Source of the DNA: Nitrospirota bacterium
GTDB taxonomy: Bacteria; Nitrospirota; 9FT-COMBO-42-15; HDB-SIOI813
Assembly (NCBI GenBank): GCA_016212215.1
Contig: JACRGV010000036.1
Location: forward strand, 1 to 52,459
Reading direction: 5' to 3'
DNA length: 52,459 bases
The first letter of the stretch is position 1, and each line of letters opens with the position of its first letter. A program made the translations under genes and the position numbers. Below are positions 39,370-46,765 of this stretch, piece by piece. The notes beneath the pieces are model-generated. The model saw only the letters and a program-made list of their open reading frames with translations. It did not search any database and was not told the DNA's origin.

Positions 39370-40269
39370 TTAACCTGCCGGGAATAACAAAGCCACAGCC
39401 CTTTTTTTCTTATCATCATTTCCCATTGGCGGCAGATTCATTGCCTCAACTAAATAAACAGGATTGGCTGGTATATCCCAGTCCTCAGTTCCGCTTGTAA
39501 TCTCGTTTGTCTCAATCGTACGGTAAACAGACGAATTATCAGGTACAGATTTGTTGCGGTGAATGAAGTATCTGAACCCAGGTGAGGTGATGGTATAAAG
39601 AACCCTCATTTTCGGAACTGCTCCATCACGGAGTGGATTTTCAGATTTCCTGAAACCCTCCTCAAGAAATACTGCGGCACATACCTTCAACCCACTGCCG
39701 GTCATCTTAATAATTGTGGCGGTTTTGGATGCCCTGAACAATTCTGATAATTGCGGTACTGCCCTCATAGAAATGCCGTACTGCCTCAGATTATCAAGGA
39801 AATAGTCCCCGGGTAGCAGAAGTTCGGAGGCCGCAATATCACACAGCGTTTCCACCTCTCTATTCGGATCTATGTTGTCAGTTTTTTTTGACCTCATCTG
39901 AATAAATCCGGAATGGTCAGGGAAAAAGGTATGTGCAATCTCATGGCAGATAGAGAAGTTCCGGCGCTCAGGGAGTTGAACAGATGTATTTAACAGGATG
40001 TTCATAGAGCCGTCACCGGCAGGATAAATCATGGCATCTGCTTCAAGATGTATTTCTGCAGGGATAATCTTTATGCCCAGCAGTCCGGCAAGAATAGCAG
40101 GATCAAAAGGCGGGCCGCTCCATCCGCAATCTACTGCATACCGGAAAAGGCTTTTCGCCTTCTCCCGGATAATTGCCTCAGGATTATTGTCCAATCCGCC
40201 GGACGCCATAGATTCTTCTATAAGACTGATTACAGAAGGGTGTCTCCATCTGCGGTTGTTGAGTCGCAA
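39370..40269 (-). CDS. ImmA/IrrE-type metallopeptidase
   Basis: 299 residues. Zinc-protease motif ICHEIAHTFFPDH (HExxH) and the downstream ETLCDIAASELLLP with the third ligand Glu, as in ImmA of ICEBs1 and IrrE of Deinococcus. A C-terminal GAF-like part (about 170-299) follows. Such enzymes cut a cognate XRE repressor; the XRE gene lies 11 nt upstream on the same strand. TTG start with AGGAGG 6 nt before it. Probably a regulatory pair from a mobile element. Confidence 0.85.
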   Translation of the reverse strand: MRLNNRRWRHPSVISLIEESMASGGLDNNPEAIIREKAKSLFRYAVDCGWSGPPFDPAILAGLLGIKIIPAEIHLEADAMIYPAGDGSMNILLNTSVQLPERRNFSICHEIAHTFFPDHSGFIQMRSKKTDNIDPNREVETLCDIAASELLLPGDYFLDNLRQYGISMRAVPQLSELFRASKTATIIKMTGSGLKVCAAVFLEEGFRKSENPLRDGAVPKMRVLYTITSPGFRYFIHRNKSVPDNSSVYRTIETNEITSGTEDWDIPANPVYLVEAMNLPPMGNDDKKKRAVALLFPAG

Positions 40270-40280
40270 CTCCCCCCTCC

Positions 40281-40697
40281 TTACTTACCGCCGGTTACCC
40301 TGTAAATCGTCTCGCATAAATAAGCCCAGTCCTCCTTGCTCATCGCCCCCTTTTTTCTTGTCTTCACCTGAGTCAGGGCACGGATAATATCTTCAGGCAC
40401 AGGATTGCCGCCCCTTCTCCGTTCCTCAAGAAACTCCTCCAGAGTCTTATCCTTAATCTCAGGAATGTTTATTGCGTTAACCTTCTGAAGTTCAAGAATG
40501 TCTGCAATAGTGACATCCATGGCATCAGCAAGTTTCTTCAGGGTATCAACGGACGGGCTTATGATGATTTCATTCTCAAGCTGTGAGATATACCCCTTGG
40601 ACACCCCGGACTTTTCAGCCAGCTCAGGGAGAGTCAGGTTCTTTAATTTCCGAAGGTTGGCGACCCTCTTACCTACATGACCTTTTGGATACTTCAT
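40281..40697 (-). CDS. XRE-family transcriptional regulator (partner of ImmA-like protease)
   Basis: 138 residues from ATG 40697 (GGAGG 9 nt upstream). The HTH covers about residues 10-62: LTLPELAEKSGVSKGYISQL followed by a linker to SVDTLKKLADAMDVTIADIL. The C-terminal half is charged and helical and may be the protease-cleaved part. Divergent from the ARPP-1-like gene, which it may regulate together with its own operon. Confidence 0.85.
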   Translation of the reverse strand: MKYPKGHVGKRVANLRKLKNLTLPELAEKSGVSKGYISQLENEIIISPSVDTLKKLADAMDVTIADILELQKVNAINIPEIKDKTLEEFLEERRRGGNPVPEDIIRALTQVKTRKKGAMSKEDWAYLCETIYRVTGGK

Positions 40698-40768
40698 CAG
40701 TAAATCCTCCATAATCACAGTAGCATATATGGTTCAGTGTTGTAAACAAAAAATGAAAAATGTTAAGC

Positions 40769-40840: not shown

Positions 40841-41876
40841 ATGAAAGATGTACAAGCCTATTTTAAAGGATTCAGGGTCAATGAACCTCAGACTTATGAG
40901 AATCTGACGATTTTCCCATTATTCAGAGAGGAGGCGCCGGGAACATATTACCTTATGCTGGACGAGGCCCTGAAGAAGGGCATAGTCACAGTGACCGAGG
41001 TCAATGACACCGGCAGGTTTGCAGAGCTATGGCTCAGAAACGATGCAGACATTCCAATACTCCTGCTTGACGGTGAAGAGCTTGCAGGGGCAAAACAGGA
41101 CAGGATACTCAATGCGTCCATACTTGTGCCCGCGGAAACAGCCATGACAGACCCTAAGCTGTGTTGAGCAGGGGAGATGGCACTACAAGAGCAGGACATT
41201 CTGCTCAAAAGACCGGATGTATAAACCAACCGACAGAGGCAGAAAGGCAAAGAGGGTATACATGTCAGTTAAATCAGGCCGCGGCTTCAATGCCGGACAA
41301 TCAGATGTTTGGGAAGAAGTCGCGTGTCTCCATACAAGATTTGGAACTCATTCAAAGACAAGTGCGATGGCCGATATTTACGATAACCAGAAGGGAAACC
41401 TCGAATCCTACATCAACGGCTTTTCAATAGCAGATGGCCAAACCGGCTTCGTTGCCCTGATTAACGGAAACATCATCGGCCTTGAAGCCCTGAGCCTCCC
41501 CGAAGCCTTCAAACAAACCTGGCCCAAATTGATCAAAAGCTACGCCCTTGATGCGATAGATATGAGATTGGATAGCAACGAAAAAGTATCCCCTGATCCA
41601 AACACCCTCCCCCCTTGCGGGGGAGGGCAGGGTGGGGGGAATATGGGTGCCTCTATCATCCCCCCTTTAGAAAAGGGGGACAAGGGGGGATTTGGCGTCA
41701 CGAGAGATTTCATAACAAACTGGCTCTCCACCATCACCCCCCCCCAAAACATCTCATTCCACAAATCCCCCGGCCTCGGCAATGACATCAGATGGGATGA
41801 GACCGGCACAGCAGGATTTGTGTTGGAATATAATGACGAGGCGGTGCATACAGCGGTATTTGCGGTGGGGGAGTAA
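40841..41876 (+). pseudogene. ARPP-1-like (DUF6569) protein gene, frameshifted and carrying a repeat
   Basis: First frame 40841-41167: YENLTIFPLF, LLLDGEELAGAKQDRILNAS, ILVPAETAMTDP, then a premature stop. From about 41158 another frame continues CVEQGRWHYKSRTFCSKDRM, then VYMSVKSG, DVWEEVA, HSKTSAMADIY and GFVALINGNIIGLEAL, to 41876. A single extra base near 41157 (CCTAAGC for CCTAGC) explains the break. The tail also carries in-frame repeat residues (NTLPPCGGGQGGG...KGDKGGFG, from 41588-41692). ARPP-1-type domains have no settled function. Start ATG 40841. Either a recent pseudogene or a base-call error. Confidence 0.75.
41588..41692. repeat. G-rich modular repeats in frame within the ARPP-1-like gene
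   Basis: CCCTCCCCCCTTGCGGGGGAGGG and CCCCCCTTTAGAAAAGGGGG palindromes side by side. Both are open in the host frame. Confidence 0.8.
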
Positions 41877-42318
41877 GAATTACTCTGGTATTGGGTAAAA
41901 GAACTGGTGACAAAGTTGGAATGCCTTTTTTATACACAATAACAAATTGGGCAACAGCCTGTTGCCTATTTTGCGAATAATACTGAGGCTCTTGCAAAAG
42001 TCTTGAAAAAGTGGAATTTGTCATTCCCACGAAAGTGGGAATCCATTCTTTTCAATATGTTGCAAAACCTCTGGATTCCCGTTTTCACGGGAATGACGAC
42101 TTTTGCAAGAGCCTCTACTGTTATCCTAATTATCAGAAGAGAACTTTGAGCATAATATATTGAACGAATTACCCACATACTGCGGGGCACATCATTGCAA
42201 TCAATACAAAATGCAAAATATTGAAAGGCAATTTATTGTTTTCAGTATGCATCTTCCTAAATTGATTGAACCTAATGCTTTCTTTTATAACAATGATAAT
42301 GAGGGATTAAGTAAACGA
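41877..42318. other. 442-bp gene-free stretch with one MITE
   Basis: Contains the 131-bp element at 41985-42115. The rest (41877-41980 and 42120-42318) is AT-rich with no credible gene, tRNA or terminator. Confidence 0.6.
41985..42115. mobile_element. 131-bp MITE with TACT target duplication
   Basis: Terminal inverted repeats GAGGCTCTTGCAAAAGTC (41985-42002) and its complement (42098-42115), flanked by TACT at 41981-41984 and 42116-42119. Internal GTCATTCCCACGAAAGTGGG and a mirrored GATTCCCGTTTTCACGGG block. No coding capacity. Confidence 0.9.
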
Positions 42319-42723
42319 TTATCTGTCAATAGCTCTTAATATTTTTCTTATGCTTTTGTTTATGCTATTCTTAATCTCATATTCCCACAGCCGCACTACT
42401 TTCCAGCCTTCTTTTTTTAATAGCCTATTAACTTTGCGATCTCTTTTTCTATTGCTGTCTATTTTATTAGACCAATATAGAACATTGGTTTTTGGCATTA
42501 TACATCTTGTCTTATGTCCATGCCAAAAGTCAGAATCAATAAAAACAGTAACTTTCTTTCTGCGAAAAACAAAATCAGGTTTACCCACTATATTAGATAC
42601 ATGGGATGTAAAATAAATCTTCCTGCGTTTAAGTTCCACAGCAATTAACTGTTCGGGCTTTGTTCCAACTGAACGGATATTCTGCATGTTTTTATGTCTT
42701 TGCTCTTTTGTTAAGTTGTCCAT
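42319..42723 (-). CDS. vsr: Very short patch repair endonuclease (Vsr)
   Basis: 134 residues. Nicks 5' of T in T:G mismatches left by deamination of 5-methylcytosine. MQNIRSVGTKPE, VGKPDFVF (catalytic Asp50), FIDSDFWHGH and the C-terminal LWEYEI match the family. The stop-side region lies in AT-rich foreign-looking DNA. Its ATG overlaps the end of the HhH glycosylase gene by 32 nt. Last gene of the restriction-modification operon. Confidence 0.92.
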   Translation of the reverse strand: MDNLTKEQRHKNMQNIRSVGTKPEQLIAVELKRRKIYFTSHVSNIVGKPDFVFRRKKVTVFIDSDFWHGHKTRCIMPKTNVLYWSNKIDSNRKRDRKVNRLLKKEGWKVVRLWEYEIKNSINKSIRKILRAIDR

Positions 42724-43339
42724 AATCGTTAATAAAGTCTTTCAGAATTTTTCTATTAATTAATTCCCAAAGATAAAGCGCTGCTAATGTTTCACAGTTA
42801 CAAACGTATTTTTTAATTTTCTTAGTATTATTATGACCAAATAATACTTTACACGCATTTTTTATCCCTGTATCATTTTCAGGCCAGACATCCATTCGAC
42901 CGAAATAAAAAATACCGATCATATCTGCGGACCATCTTCCAAAGCCCCATATACTGGAGATCTCTTTTCTATACTCTTCTATGGGTAATTGGCCCCACTT
43001 CATCCATGCGTTACTGTTTAATGATATATACTTCCTCCACTCGTATAGTGCGCGGCGCTTTCGTTGGGAAACACCATAAATAGGGCCGGATAGCATATAA
43101 GTATTAGAAGCCCAATTAATAATTTCATGAGAAGTTCCAACTTGTTTATGTAAAAAAGAAATAATAGATGCTGATGCTGAGTTTGATAGCATTTGGCCTA
43201 TGACAGAATAAACAATTGCATCATCTATTGATGTCCAGTAAGGCAGGTTAATGTTCAGACTACCAATTTTATGAATTACTTGATTAAATTTTTTTCTTTT
43301 TGATAATATTTCAGTATAGACATCGAATTTATTCATCAT
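42692..43339 (-). CDS. HhH-GPD DNA glycosylase (AlkA/MIG-like) in the RM operon
   Basis: 215 residues from ATG 43339. The HhH-GPD fold is shown by VYSVIGQMLSNSASASII and IWGFGRWSADMIGIFYFGRM, with the catalytic Asp156 in DVWPENDTGIK. No four-Cys iron-sulfur loop is seen at the C-terminus. Glycosylases of this group remove alkylated or mismatched bases. Between a cytosine-5 methylase/REase pair and vsr, a role against T:G mismatches from methylcytosine deamination is plausible (inference). Longer starts (TTG 43450, ATG near 43396) would overlap the REase gene; none has a strong ribosome site. Confidence 0.78.
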   Translation of the reverse strand: MMNKFDVYTEILSKRKKFNQVIHKIGSLNINLPYWTSIDDAIVYSVIGQMLSNSASASIISFLHKQVGTSHEIINWASNTYMLSGPIYGVSQRKRRALYEWRKYISLNSNAWMKWGQLPIEEYRKEISSIWGFGRWSADMIGIFYFGRMDVWPENDTGIKNACKVLFGHNNTKKIKKYVCNCETLAALYLWELINRKILKDFINDYGQLNKRAKT

Positions 43340-43364
43340 TGAAACATCTTTATGAGGCGTAAGT

Positions 43365-44321
43365 CTACATCCTATCGATAAGTGTTTTCCACTCATCTTC
43401 CTTCCAAATAAGATTTCCAGTATTGAATAAATAACCACTATCGTGAGCAAACTCTCCTATGCCTTCAAACGTAACAGAACCCTCTACTCCTTCTCTATTT
43501 TTAATTATGTCCAGATCTCCTGGATTGATAGGACCATTCCACGATAGTATTTTATAATGCTTCTTGCCCTTCTTGCCAGTATATGACAATTCTTGATACT
43601 TTTTATTTTGAATTACAAAGCCACAAATGTAAGCAGGTATTGGTTTAAAACTTGGTAGACTATCAAAGAGTAATTCTGATTCTTTACCTGTTAAACAACC
43701 AATTTCTTCCCCCTTCTTTAAAACCTTATCTCTGAACACACTTATTTTTTTAAAGAATGCAAATAGGTGATCTCTCCCTGTTCCCACTTTGACCAAGACA
43801 TGTATATCGGAGTGATTAAACTGGTCGCCTGGAATATCAAGCCAAATACCGTTCCACTTGGTGGTTTTTACACTAATTTTTAATTTGGGGGGTCTATATT
43901 CTCCTGCAACTTCCTTTATTTGATGAATATCCATTGGTAAATATTCTTCCAGTTGCCCAACTTCATGGCCCAACTTTGCGTCAATCTTCCACCTTTTTTC
44001 TAAATAAAGCAAGAAAGCAAGCTCGCCCAAATATCCTCTAGTCATATCAGCCCATAATTGTCCTAAATCCCTCTGGCGGCTCCCTCCATAGTCTGTTGCC
44101 GCAGTGGTACTTAAAATTTTGAGCGCGTCAATACACATTCTGGTATAACCGTCTTCATCAATAAAAACACAATTTGGGAAAAACCTCTGTTCGAACCATT
44201 CGCCTGATTCTTCCTCAGTTGTTTCTTGACCTATTATGGCCTTTTCTAATATCTTTTTTGCTTCCTCTTTAGAAACATTCAGCGCATTCTCAATAGATTC
44301 AAAAGCTCTAAGATTTGTCAT
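43365..44321 (-). CDS. Type II restriction endonuclease (predicted)
   Basis: 318 residues from ATG 44321, which has GGGGG 4-5 nt upstream. No family is recognised by eye. It lies 19 nt downstream of the methyltransferase in the same operon. A likely PD-(D/E)xK core is KLKISVKTTKWNGIWLDIPG (about residues 145-165), with an upstream acidic stretch MDIHQIKEVAGEY. ATDYGGSRQRDLGQLWADM and a Trp/Tyr-rich C-terminus (HYKILSWNGPINPGDL) are other marks. The assignment rests mainly on position next to a C5 methylase and vsr. Specificity unknown. Confidence 0.65.
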   Translation of the reverse strand: MTNLRAFESIENALNVSKEEAKKILEKAIIGQETTEEESGEWFEQRFFPNCVFIDEDGYTRMCIDALKILSTTAATDYGGSRQRDLGQLWADMTRGYLGELAFLLYLEKRWKIDAKLGHEVGQLEEYLPMDIHQIKEVAGEYRPPKLKISVKTTKWNGIWLDIPGDQFNHSDIHVLVKVGTGRDHLFAFFKKISVFRDKVLKKGEEIGCLTGKESELLFDSLPSFKPIPAYICGFVIQNKKYQELSYTGKKGKKHYKILSWNGPINPGDLDIIKNREGVEGSVTFEGIGEFAHDSGYLFNTGNLIWKEDEWKTLIDRM

Positions 44322-44340
44322 TAATCCCCCACGGTTATTA

Positions 44341-45441
44341 TTAGCCAACCAATTCCAACTGCTCAAAGTTGTTTGATATAATACTTGGATATTGTATATT
44401 TGCTAATGTTTTTAAAATAGATGTGAATATTATTTCAGATAATTTAGGAGGGACTGCCATCCCGATTTGTTTTCTTACACTTTCCTTGGATCCTTCAAAC
44501 ACAAAATCATCAGGAAACGATTGGAGTCTTGCACGCTCTCTATTTGTAAGCGCACGAGGTTCGTAGTAGTGATATCCATGAGTACCCCCCCCGCCGCTGC
44601 CGGTAATGGTGTATGATGGTTTGTCTGGATGTAAACGCCGATAAATTTGACTCAACTTCGCACCTTTAACATTGAGGCGTAAATGCGCCGGTAAATCTGC
44701 AGTCCATGCATTTTCCCATGGCTTTGTATTCTTTAATCTCTCAATAACTATTTTTGACTGTAACGTGAAATCATTATTAGGGGCGCCGCTGGGGATTGGA
44801 GGGTTTTCTAATGCTTCTCTTGCTGTCATTGGGTTTGATTGTGTAGTGGGTTTTGGTATTTTAAAAAATAAATTAAGATCCTTATCAAAGCCTACAATAA
44901 TAAGTCTCCATCTGGTTTGAGGAATCCCGTATTCTTCTGCTTTATACAAATGCGGTGTAATATTATATCCGTTGCCAGCTTGTTTCAAGTCATTAAGAAT
45001 TGTCTCAAAAGCTCTTCCTTCATTTGCTGATGTTATTCCGCCAACATTTTCTGCAACAAAAATTCTTGGCTTGAAATTGTTCAATATTTTAACACCATAA
45101 GTATATAGCGGGCCAAATATGCCATCGAAGCCTTTTTGTTCACCAACAATACTAAAATCATTACATGGAAATCCGTAAGCAAAAATATCTATTGGTGAAA
45201 GATGCAAAAAATTTATATGGCGTACATCCTCGCAGATCACAGAATAGGGTCTGTCTTGGCAGATGTTCCTTATATAGGTTTTACAAGAATCTGAATTATA
45301 ATCATTTGCCCATTCATGTTGAATACTATATATAATATCAGCAGTTTCAACTTTAGAGTGTATTGCCCCTAATGCGAGGCCGCCAGGCCCAGAGAACAAC
45401 TCCCCTAATTTTAAAACGATATGTTTTTTCTCTTGAATCAT
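44341..45441 (-). CDS. DNA (cytosine-5) methyltransferase
   Basis: 366 residues. Motif I ELFSGPGGLALG (14-25), motif IV GFPCNDFS with catalytic Cys93 (PCN instead of the common PCQ), motif VI VAENVGG, motif VIII PQTRWRLIIVG, motif X KQIGMAVPP. The target-recognition region lies between VIII and IX (about 190-295) and contains a Gly-rich SGGGGTHGYHYYEPRALT. Protects host DNA from the adjacent endonuclease. ATG start; first gene of the operon. The DNA here is clearly more AT-rich than flanking genes, suggesting transfer. Confidence 0.93.
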   Translation of the reverse strand: MIQEKKHIVLKLGELFSGPGGLALGAIHSKVETADIIYSIQHEWANDYNSDSCKTYIRNICQDRPYSVICEDVRHINFLHLSPIDIFAYGFPCNDFSIVGEQKGFDGIFGPLYTYGVKILNNFKPRIFVAENVGGITSANEGRAFETILNDLKQAGNGYNITPHLYKAEEYGIPQTRWRLIIVGFDKDLNLFFKIPKPTTQSNPMTAREALENPPIPSGAPNNDFTLQSKIVIERLKNTKPWENAWTADLPAHLRLNVKGAKLSQIYRRLHPDKPSYTITGSGGGGTHGYHYYEPRALTNRERARLQSFPDDFVFEGSKESVRKQIGMAVPPKLSEIIFTSILKTLANIQYPSIISNNFEQLELVG

Positions 45442-45696: not shown

Positions 45697-45852
45697 ATGG
45701 GGGGTAATAATGTCATGGTTGCCGCTTTGATGTAATTTGTAACCCCTATTGATGTTATCCCGGATGTAATCCCGGGGATTGGATTCTGTGATGATATTGC
45801 GGTTTTGCTGACTGTTAAGAGCCTGATTGGAGATGTGCATGGAGCCTGTTGA
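45697..45852 (+). pseudogene. DUF1232 (YkvA-like) fragment
   Basis: Frame from ATG 45697 reads NNVMVAALM, TAA, then FVTPIDVIPDVIPGIGFCDD and [13 protein letters not shown]. PIDxIPDxIPxxGxxDD is the DUF1232 signature. The TAA stands where Tyr is usual. Only this core remains, and it runs into the start of the next gene. Confidence 0.65.
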
Positions 45853-46765
45853 GCGTTTTGCCGGTGCATTGCTTGTGCTGGCGACCGGTGATGCTATTGG
45901 AACGTCACTGGAATTCAGCGAACCGGGGGAATTTATACCAATTGAGGACATGGTTGGGAGTGGCCCCTTTTTACTTGAACCGGGTCAATGGACGGATGAT
46001 ACTTCAATGGCCTTGTGCCTTGCTGACAGCCTGATTAAACGGCAGGGCTTTGATCCTCTTGATCAGATGGAAAGGTATTTTCGCTGGTATCGGGAAGGTT
46101 ATATGAGCAGTACAGGATACTGTTTTGATATTGGTAATACTGTGAGGACTGCTCTTAAACGGTTTGAGAAGGAACATCAGCCGTATTGCGGTTCAAAAGA
46201 CCCTCGTTCTGCCGGTAATGGATGTATCATGAGGCTGGCCCCTGTACCGCTTTTCTACTCTTTGAGGCCGGCGGAGGCTATAGAGAAATCAGGTTTAAGT
46301 TCCTTAACAACACATGGAGCACAGTCCTGTATTGATGCATGCAGATACCTTGGGGCCTTGCTGGCCGGTGCATTAAATGGGGTAACTAAAGATGATCTTC
46401 TATCAAATCGCTATACCCTTGTTTCTATGCTGTGGGATAAGGCTCCACTCGCAGATGAAATTGACAGGATCGCCGCAGGCTCATTTAAAATCAATGAGCC
46501 TCCTGTTATCAAAAGCACGGGCTATGTCATTGATACGCTGGAAGCGGCGCTCTGGGCCTTCTATCATACTGATTCTTTCAGAGAAGGCTGTTTACGTGTG
46601 GTAAATGTTGGGGGTGATGCGGATACCTCAGGGGCTGTCTATGGACAGTTGGCCGGTGCTTATTATGGTAAAGAGGGTATCCCTGAATCCTGGCTTAACA
46701 AACTTGCAAAAAGGGATTTGATTGAGGGTTTGGCAGGGAAGCTTTTTTCAATGTCCAGATTATAG
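45839..46765 (+). CDS. ADP-ribosylglycohydrolase family protein
   Basis: 308 residues. [47 protein letters not shown] and [19 protein letters not shown] carry the two-magnesium site of the DraG/ARH family, which removes ADP-ribose from proteins or other targets. ATG 45839 is preferred because GGAG lies 6 nt upstream; TTG 45827 and ATG 45833 are alternatives. It stands alone; no ADP-ribosyltransferase is next to it. Confidence 0.9.

What the first reader, a model, noticed from the sequence alone, without database searches (positions are those of the whole stretch)
42319..45441. Restriction-modification operon with two different T:G repair-type enzymes
Order is C5 methylase, predicted endonuclease, HhH-GPD glycosylase, Vsr. 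Vsr alone is the common companion; thermophile Mig-type glycosylases are the other known solution. Having both overlapping in one operon (32 nt) implies unusual pressure from methylcytosine deamination, or a glycosylase with another role. The REase family was not recognised and may be new.
Basis: partly seen in the sequence, partly recalled or inferred. Interest (0 to 1): 0.56.

Follow-up and report, generated by a model that had tools for sequence, protein, structure and literature searches.

The report
Restriction operon with two repair enzymes
A bacterial DNA-cutting defence operon carries not only the usual enzyme that fixes the mutations its own DNA methylation causes, but also a second, unusual base-removing enzyme that probably does a related repair job.

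Summary
The four-gene operon is real: C5 methyltransferase, PD-(D/E)XK-like restriction enzyme, HhH-GPD glycosylase, Vsr, all on the minus strand, glycosylase and Vsr overlapping by 32 nt. It looks horizontally acquired: 36% GC, and the restriction enzyme is found in no other of 395 same-phylum genomes. The endonuclease is unnamed in Pfam and NCBIfam but matches a PADLOC type II REase model. The glycosylase is not Mig-like. It lies on the AlkA/MAG2 branch, keeps the catalytic Asp and hairpin, and has lost residues that nearly all sampled relatives keep. Homologous systems put different enzymes in the same slot: Vsr, a Mig-like glycosylase (Thermus plasmids, a viral contig), an AlkA-type remnant (Omnitrophus), or nothing seen. 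An unrelated HaeII-type system has an AlkA-type glycosylase in one genome and Vsr in a viral contig. I favour repair of deaminated 5-methylcytosine (T:G) by an AlkA-type enzyme, at about even odds. Repair of methyltransferase-made alkylation damage is the main rival; one AlkA-type enzyme sits in a predicted adenine R-M cassette, which argues against a pure 5mC story. The substrate is unshown. Both enzymes in one operon were seen only here.

The parts
44341..45441 (-). C5-cytosine DNA methyltransferase (366 aa)
   Evidence: PF00145 3.7e-69; TIGR00675 7.4e-52; PADLOC PDLC03378 5.9e-111; PDB best M.HaeIII/M.HhaI; 55-68% identical orthologues
43365..44321 (-). Type II restriction endonuclease (318 aa from ATG 44321; mechanical ORF begins TTG 44366)
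   Evidence: PADLOC PDLC03411 REase_II 3.3e-65; family alignment with invariant E100, D131, K152; AlphaFold2 pLDDT 88.8, VIA-align best Z 6.2, then Hjc resolvases 5.9-5.3 and I-Ssp6803I 5.5
42692..43339 (-). AlkA/MAG2-branch HhH-GPD DNA glycosylase (215 aa from ATG 43339; mechanical ORF begins TTG 43450)
   Evidence: phmmer to S. pombe Mag2 7e-12 and 2h56 1.4e-9; catalytic Asp156, Gly132, Gly134, Trp136 conserved
42319..42723 (-). Vsr (very short patch) T:G mismatch endonuclease (134 aa)
   Evidence: PF03852 4.5e-20; TIGR00632 6.6e-35; PDB 1cw0 E. coli Vsr 3.4e-14
42692..42723 (-). 32-nt overlap of glycosylase 3' end and Vsr 5' end
   Evidence: ORF coordinates

Best explanation
A mobile type II restriction-modification operon that brings its own repair for the mutagenic side effect of 5-methylcytosine. 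The methyltransferase marks its site with 5mC; the PD-(D/E)XK-like enzyme cuts unmarked DNA (both inferred from families). Deamination of 5mC gives T:G. Vsr nicks 5' of the T in its sequence context (family knowledge). The other gene encodes an AlkA-branch HhH-GPD glycosylase whose base pocket has been rebuilt; I infer that it removes the mismatched T (or a related product of the methylated cytosine), leaving an abasic site for ordinary base-excision repair, perhaps where Vsr does not act, e.g. outside its sequence context or after off-target methylation. It would be a third, AlkA-derived solution beside Vsr and Mig. Shown: operon, families, conserved catalytic residues, loss of usual pocket residues, recurrence of the slot with Vsr or Mig-like enzymes. 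Inferred: substrate and division of labour.
For: (1) Slot exchange in homologous systems: of 25 loci with this endonuclease family (window; Thermus L021, L022, L027; L033-L049; L050, L051; L166, L167), 7 have Vsr (window, L043, L048, L049, L050, L166, L167), 4 have a Mig-like glycosylase (L021, L022, L027, L051), and one more has an AlkA-type remnant (L033). (2) The Thermus L021, L051 and L091 glycosylases match the PDB entry 'Possible G-T mismatches repair enzyme' 1kea best (1.1e-35, 2.3e-40, 6.8e-40). (3) Of 77 viral-contig loci with a related methyltransferase, 20 have Vsr in the fetched flank (11 within 1 kb) and 2 a Mig-like enzyme. (4) L033 carries, just downstream of its endonuclease, an N-terminal remnant of the same glycosylase (37% over 65 aa) sharing the unusual Asp-Asp at positions 39-40 and lacking the second Gln. 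(5) An unrelated HaeII-type C5 system has an AlkA-type glycosylase 91 bp upstream of the methyltransferase in one genome (L154), while a viral HaeII-type system (L162) has Vsr overlapping the endonuclease gene. (6) The window enzyme has lost residues that nearly all other AlkA-type rows keep: Gln50 (42 of 43; Met here), Arg62 (43 of 43; Phe here), aromatic 39 (40 of 43; Asp here), Tyr/Phe/His182 (42 of 43; Cys here), while catalytic Asp156 and the hairpin stay.
Against: Vsr is already present, so a second T:G enzyme may be redundant. AlkA-type enzymes are not known to me as T:G glycosylases. Among 77 related methyltransferase loci none has an AlkA-type gene at E 1e-3. An AlkA-type gene also follows a SacI-family endonuclease and a D12 (adenine-type) methylase on two plasmids, so the class is not tied to 5mC. 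The L154 enzyme keeps Gln50, Arg62 and Tyr182, so the rebuilt pocket is not shared by all linked cases. The L033 operon is itself decaying. The glycosylase model was poor (pLDDT 46.9), so pocket statements rest on sequence alignment and on my recall of AlkA residues.
Confidence: 0.48

Rival explanations
1. Repair of alkylation by-products: the methyltransferase occasionally methylates the wrong atom (e.g. N3 of cytosine) and the AlkA-branch glycosylase removes that lesion, while Vsr handles T:G. The two enzymes would then cover two different self-inflicted lesions.
For: The glycosylase is AlkA-branch. The genome has no AlkB-type demethylase match (PF13532: 0 matches; the control rings in 3 of 14 genomes) and no second gene matching the glycosylase. 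PMC8307549 (passages) says an archaeal AlkA-like glycosylase removes m1A and m3C. The title of Rosic et al. 2018, seen only in a reference list, states that alkylation damage is a by-product of cytosine methyltransferases. It explains co-occurrence with Vsr and the adenine-methylase cassette.
Against: The window enzyme lacks the aromatic residues at 39 and 182 that most sampled AlkA-type proteins keep, which I expect (recall) to stack on alkylated bases. Slot exchange with Mig-like and Vsr enzymes is not predicted.
Confidence: 0.22
2. Passenger: an ordinary AlkA-type repair gene that landed in a restriction operon and gives general alkylation repair without functional tie to methylation.
For: AlkA-type genes are common (48 of 198 same-phylum genomes) and mostly not beside a C5 methyltransferase: 41 of 43 genome-search loci have none within about 1.5 kb.
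Against: Tight packing with 32-nt overlap; a second occurrence in the same place in L033 with shared derived residues; a highly diverged pocket rather than a standard one.
Confidence: 0.18
3. Defence effector: the glycosylase attacks phage DNA with modified bases, by analogy with Brig1 and Brig3, complementing the restriction enzyme.
For: Glycosylases with anti-phage activity exist (PMC11078745 passages; PMC13160076 abstract and passages). The operon is a defence cassette that looks mobile, and a rebuilt pocket could fit a modified base.
Against: Brig1 and Brig3 belong to the uracil-DNA glycosylase superfamily, not HhH. The slot is otherwise filled by T:G repair enzymes.
Confidence: 0.12

Closest known systems
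Mig (thymine-DNA glycosylase; PDB 1kea) associated with C5 methyltransferases of thermophiles
   Same: HhH-GPD glycosylase beside a C5 methyltransferase; the Thermus and L051 systems with a homologous endonuclease carry Mig-like enzymes
   Different: The window enzyme shows no significant similarity to the Thermus Mig-like protein (E 17), is AlkA/MAG2-branch and has no EndIII Fe-S match
Vsr (very short patch repair endonuclease)
   Same: Present in the operon; common beside related methyltransferases (20 of 77)
   Different: Vsr is an endonuclease, not a glycosylase; it is normally the only repair companion
AlkA / MAG2 (S. pombe Mag2, 2h56)
   Same: Family by sequence, HhH and catalytic Asp
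   Different: Pocket and wedge residues changed; encoded in a restriction operon
PADLOC PDLC03411 'Type II restriction enzyme' family
   Same: Endonuclease matches at 3.3e-65
   Different: The model bears no enzyme name or recognition site in the output
HaeII-type C5 R-M cassette with AlkA-type glycosylase (L154)
   Same: AlkA-type glycosylase adjacent to C5 methyltransferase and endonuclease
   Different: Unrelated endonuclease, different gene order, mostly canonical pocket, no Vsr found in the stretch

Membership tests
Type II R-M system (C5) | Adjacent C5 methyltransferase and endonuclease | tested here: met
   pair conserved in loci L033-L051
Type II R-M system (C5) | Site-specific methylation and cleavage | not testable with these tools
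   Needs methylome sequencing and cleavage assay
PD-(D/E)XK nuclease | Conserved acidic residue and (D/E/S)xK on adjacent core strands, common core fold | tested here: inconclusive
   For: invariant E100, D131, K152; K152 on strand 149-154 of a pLDDT 88.8 model; VIA Z 5-6 to Hjc and I-Ssp6803I. Against certainty: Foldseek gave no match with E <= 0.001, Z below 8, and the usual acidic residue of (D/E)xK is Ser or Gly here
Vsr endonuclease | Vsr domain above curated cut-off | tested here: met
   PF03852 71.7 bits vs 27 and TIGR00632 120 vs 97.85
AlkA/MAG2 branch of HhH-GPD | Best similarity to AlkA-type chains, HhH Gly-x-Gly and catalytic Asp | tested here: met
AlkA/MAG2 branch of HhH-GPD | Usual wedge and pocket residues (Gln50, Arg62, aromatic 39 and 182) | tested here: not met
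   Met, Phe, Asp, Cys in the window; hence 'divergent relative' rather than 'an AlkA'
AlkA/MAG2 branch of HhH-GPD | Excision of alkylated bases | not testable with these tools
   Needs glycosylase assay
Mig / MutY-EndoIII branch | Similarity to Mig and C-terminal Fe-S cysteine cluster | tested here: not met
   No similarity to Thermus Mig-like protein; no EndIII_4Fe-2S match at E <= 1 in Pfam; PDB hits all AlkA-type
Brig1/Brig3 defence glycosylases | Uracil-DNA glycosylase superfamily fold | tested here: not met
   Window protein is HhH type by sequence; Brig1/Brig3 described as UDG superfamily

The most novel reading that the evidence does not exclude
An AlkA-lineage glycosylase has been re-tooled into a dedicated companion of C5 restriction-modification systems, a third solution to the lesion that Vsr and Mig address, recruited more than once (window/L033 and a HaeII-type system); in this operon it works beside Vsr, so that one mobile cassette carries two layers of repair for its own methylation.
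Probability: 0.4. Interest if true: 0.65.

Novelty: new variant of a known kind. Interest (0 to 1): 0.5.

Why it matters
5mC-based restriction systems raise the mutation rate of their hosts (recall), and how a mobile system keeps that cost low is not settled. A family in which the same slot is filled by Vsr, a Mig-like or an AlkA-type enzyme is a natural experiment. The case with two enzymes asks directly whether Vsr alone is enough, and whether methyltransferases impose a second lesion such as N3 methylation. Both are testable with one operon and knockouts in a laboratory E. coli.

Tried and rejected
Mig-type identity for the window glycosylase: rejected. Brig-type defence family: rejected as family, kept as a functional rival. 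Endonuclease as a wholly new family: rejected because PDLC03411 matches. Solved-structure sequence search for the endonuclease: no match. Foldseek for the endonuclease: no match at E <= 0.001. Promoter and terminator scan: no more sites than shuffles would lead one to expect by much (22 vs 16.9, 4 vs 3.1), so not used.

Close relatives of the glycosylase: none found in viral contigs, phages or plasmids (one distant hit), nor in 198 own-phylum genomes, 285 and 379 genomes of the phyla of L033 and L036, and 77, 74 and 218 genomes of the phyla of L040, L043 and L035, apart from the L033 remnant. The last three searches were cut at E 1e-10. One search had no match at all, so it shows nothing. The genome-contig collection allowed one scan, which I spent on the endonuclease, so a glycosylase-led scan of all genomes was not done.

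Glycosylase structure: a two-row alignment gave pLDDT 46.9; not searched. Other plasmid AlkA-type neighbours looked at and found ordinary or unclear: Geminocystis, Rhizobium (104), Sphaerospermopsis (131), Nostoc (132, 133), Roseateles beside ada and alkB (134). Of the 16 plasmid records I opened 8; of the 40 no further ones. Phage records opened: 2 of 2; no C5 methyltransferase recognised in the L158 genes scanned or, by eye, in the L159 ORFs. L044 has an AlkA-type gene divergent to a broken methyltransferase; it resembles ordinary AlkA-type genes (E 2.8e-48 to the Geminocystis one), so I did not count it as linked. A Pfam tally of 91 neighbour ORFs of the 77 viral loci (only those of 155-345 aa within 1.5 kb; 268 neighbour ORFs were found with a 1.8 kb limit and no upper size) showed 2 HhH-GPD, 3 Vsr and 10 NgoFVII-type endonucleases; only the first 25 of 50 families were printed, so other glycosylase families are not excluded.

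Rows dropped: in the residue counts, 38 of 40 AlkA-type loci were used (L003 too long, L055 a fragment); one search added five (L154, L156-L159) and left out L150, L151, L153. Recognition site: not determined.
Full report
What is there. On the minus strand at 45441-42319 lie four collinear genes: a C5 methyltransferase, an endonuclease, a glycosylase and Vsr. From the likely ATG starts the intergenic gaps are 19 and 25 nt, and the last two genes overlap by 32 nt. The methyltransferase and Vsr are above the curated cut-offs of their families. The operon is 36.0% GC against 44.4% and 43.5% in the flanks. The endonuclease was found in 1 of 395 same-phylum genomes, the window's own, while 55-63% identical proteins occur in Treponema, Nitrospinota, candidate-phylum and other contigs. 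The cassette was most likely acquired horizontally.

Endonuclease. Pfam, NCBIfam and sequence search of solved structures give nothing significant, but PADLOC model PDLC03411 'Type II restriction enzyme' matches at 3.3e-65. A 14-row alignment has invariant Glu100, Asp131 and Lys152. The predicted structure is confident (pLDDT 88.8). Foldseek gave no match with E <= 0.001; VIA-align on its candidates gave Z 6.2 (a SPARDA-complex chain), 5.9-5.3 for Hjc resolvases and 5.5 for I-Ssp6803I, with EcoRV, HincII, SwaI and BglI at 2-3. I read this as a PD-(D/E)XK nuclease with moderate support.

Glycosylase. It misses the Pfam HhH-GPD cut-off but phmmer finds S. pombe Mag2 (7e-12), 2h56 (1.4e-9) and other AlkA-type chains, and no Mig, MutY or EndoIII chain. 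Against 43 AlkA-type proteins it keeps Gln49, Gly132, Gly134, Trp136 and catalytic Asp156, but has Met50 where 42 have Gln, Phe62 where 43 have Arg, Asp39 where 40 have Phe or Tyr, and Cys182 where 42 have Tyr, Phe or His (first seen with 38 rows). That Asp156 is catalytic, that Gln50 is the DNA wedge, and that 39 and 182 are pocket residues, is from recall of AlkA and Mag1 structures. A tree placed it with L056 and the HaeII-linked L154 enzyme at 95/98 support, but its branch is very long (3.59) and the bootstrap had not settled, so I give this little weight. L056 is not next to a methyltransferase.

What fills the slot elsewhere. Counting every locus with this endonuclease family that I hold (25: window; L021, L022, L027; L033-L049; L050, L051; L166, L167), Vsr is adjacent or near in 7 (window, L043, L048, L049, L050, L166, L167; in L167 only a piece of about 61 aa), a Mig-like glycosylase in 4 (L021, L022, L027, L051), an AlkA-type remnant in L033, a divergent ordinary AlkA-type gene in L044 (not counted as linked), and none seen in 12, several of them on contigs that end close by. 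Two weaker matches (L168, L169) were left out. The gene order M-R-Vsr of L050 and L166 is the window order without the glycosylase. The Mig-like proteins tested (L021, L051, L091) have the Mig structure 1kea as best solved relative.

Related methyltransferases. Of 77 viral-contig loci, 20 have Vsr in the fetched flank (11 within 1 kb; L088-L090 give identical scores and L080/L131 look alike, so these are not independent), 2 have Mig-like genes (L091, L148; L148 is the contig of L051) and 0 have AlkA-type genes at E 1e-3. Their endonucleases are varied; 10 of 91 neighbour ORFs scanned are NgoFVII-type, and plasmid relatives pair with AlwI-family enzymes. The methyltransferase therefore recurs with unrelated endonucleases.

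Linkage of AlkA-type enzymes to restriction systems. (a) L033 (Candidatus Omnitrophus magneticus): an 83-aa ORF after the endonuclease matches the glycosylase N-terminus (37% over 65 aa), shares Asp39-Asp40, and then breaks off in repeat-like sequence; its endonuclease is split too. (b) L154 (a genome of the phylum of L040, Nitrospinae): AlkA-type glycosylase, 91 bp, C5 methyltransferase, HaeII-family endonuclease (2.1e-133). A viral HaeII-type system, L162, instead has Vsr overlapping the endonuclease end, and an Acinetobacter plasmid one has neither annotated. (c) Two plasmids (Aeromonas caviae, Comamonas) carry D12 adenine-type methylase, SacI-family endonuclease, AlkA-type glycosylase (the glycosylases are identical). 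As a background, of 43 AlkA-type loci from whole-genome searches 2 have a C5 methyltransferase within about 1.5 kb: L055 (the L033 remnant itself) and L149 (= L154). One intact case in 42 could still be chance; (a) is the stronger argument because it repeats the same system and residues.

Mechanism. The simplest reading of the slot exchange is a common task, repair of the T:G mismatch that arises from 5mC. It is inferred, not shown. Against it stand the presence of Vsr, the adenine-type cassette in (c), and the mostly canonical pocket of the L154 enzyme. The main rival is repair of alkylation made by the methyltransferase itself: the genome has no AlkB family match and no other gene matching the glycosylase (the two other clear HhH-GPD genes resemble the Mig-like query), and an archaeal AlkA-like enzyme removes m3C and m1A (PMC8307549, passages). 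The loss of aromatic pocket residues argues, weakly, against alkylated substrates.

Literature. Papers seen: PMC11078745 (passages), PMC13160076 (abstract and passages), PMC4081073 (passages), PMC8307549 (passages), PMC10957082 (passages), PMC2714593 (search listing only). Searches of the held library showed no paper on an AlkA-type glycosylase in a restriction operon; the library lacks most subscription papers, so this is weak evidence of novelty. That Vsr and Mig are the known companions is supported here, otherwise recall.

Verdict. A real, well-formed and somewhat unusual operon: new variant of a known kind. Both repair genes intact in one operon were seen only in the window among the loci examined.

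Noticed in passing
window 41980-42120: Just downstream of vsr, a palindromic element with inverted ends (AGGCTCTTGCAAAAGTC ... GACTTTTGCAAGAGCCT) enclosing two smaller hairpins; looks like a small non-autonomous repeat element. Repeat-like sequence also begins where the L033 glycosylase breaks off.
   Followed up: no
window 40841-41876: What looks like one gene split into ORFs 40841-41167 and 41217-41876, with C-rich/G-rich repeat sequence around 41600-41690 inside the second.
   Followed up: no
window 39370-40718: XRE-type regulator ORF (40281-40718) next to an ORF with an HEIAH metalloprotease-like motif (39370-40269), resembling an ImmA/IrrE-type pair (by eye).
   Followed up: no
window 45827-46765: ORF resembling ADP-ribosylglycohydrolase next to the restriction operon on the opposite strand (by eye).
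   Followed up: no
L157 2708-5471 and L161 2573-5336: Adenine-type methylase, SacI-family endonuclease and AlkA-type glycosylase as a cassette on mobilizable plasmids; the Aeromonas plasmid also carries GES-24 and aac(6')-Ib as annotated.
   Followed up: partly
L021, L022, L027: Three related Thermus plasmids carry endonuclease, C5 methyltransferase and a Mig-like glycosylase annotated only as hypothetical protein.
   Followed up: partly
L091 3190-5068: Mig-like glycosylase divergent from a related C5 methyltransferase on a viral contig outside the homologous endonuclease family.
   Followed up: partly
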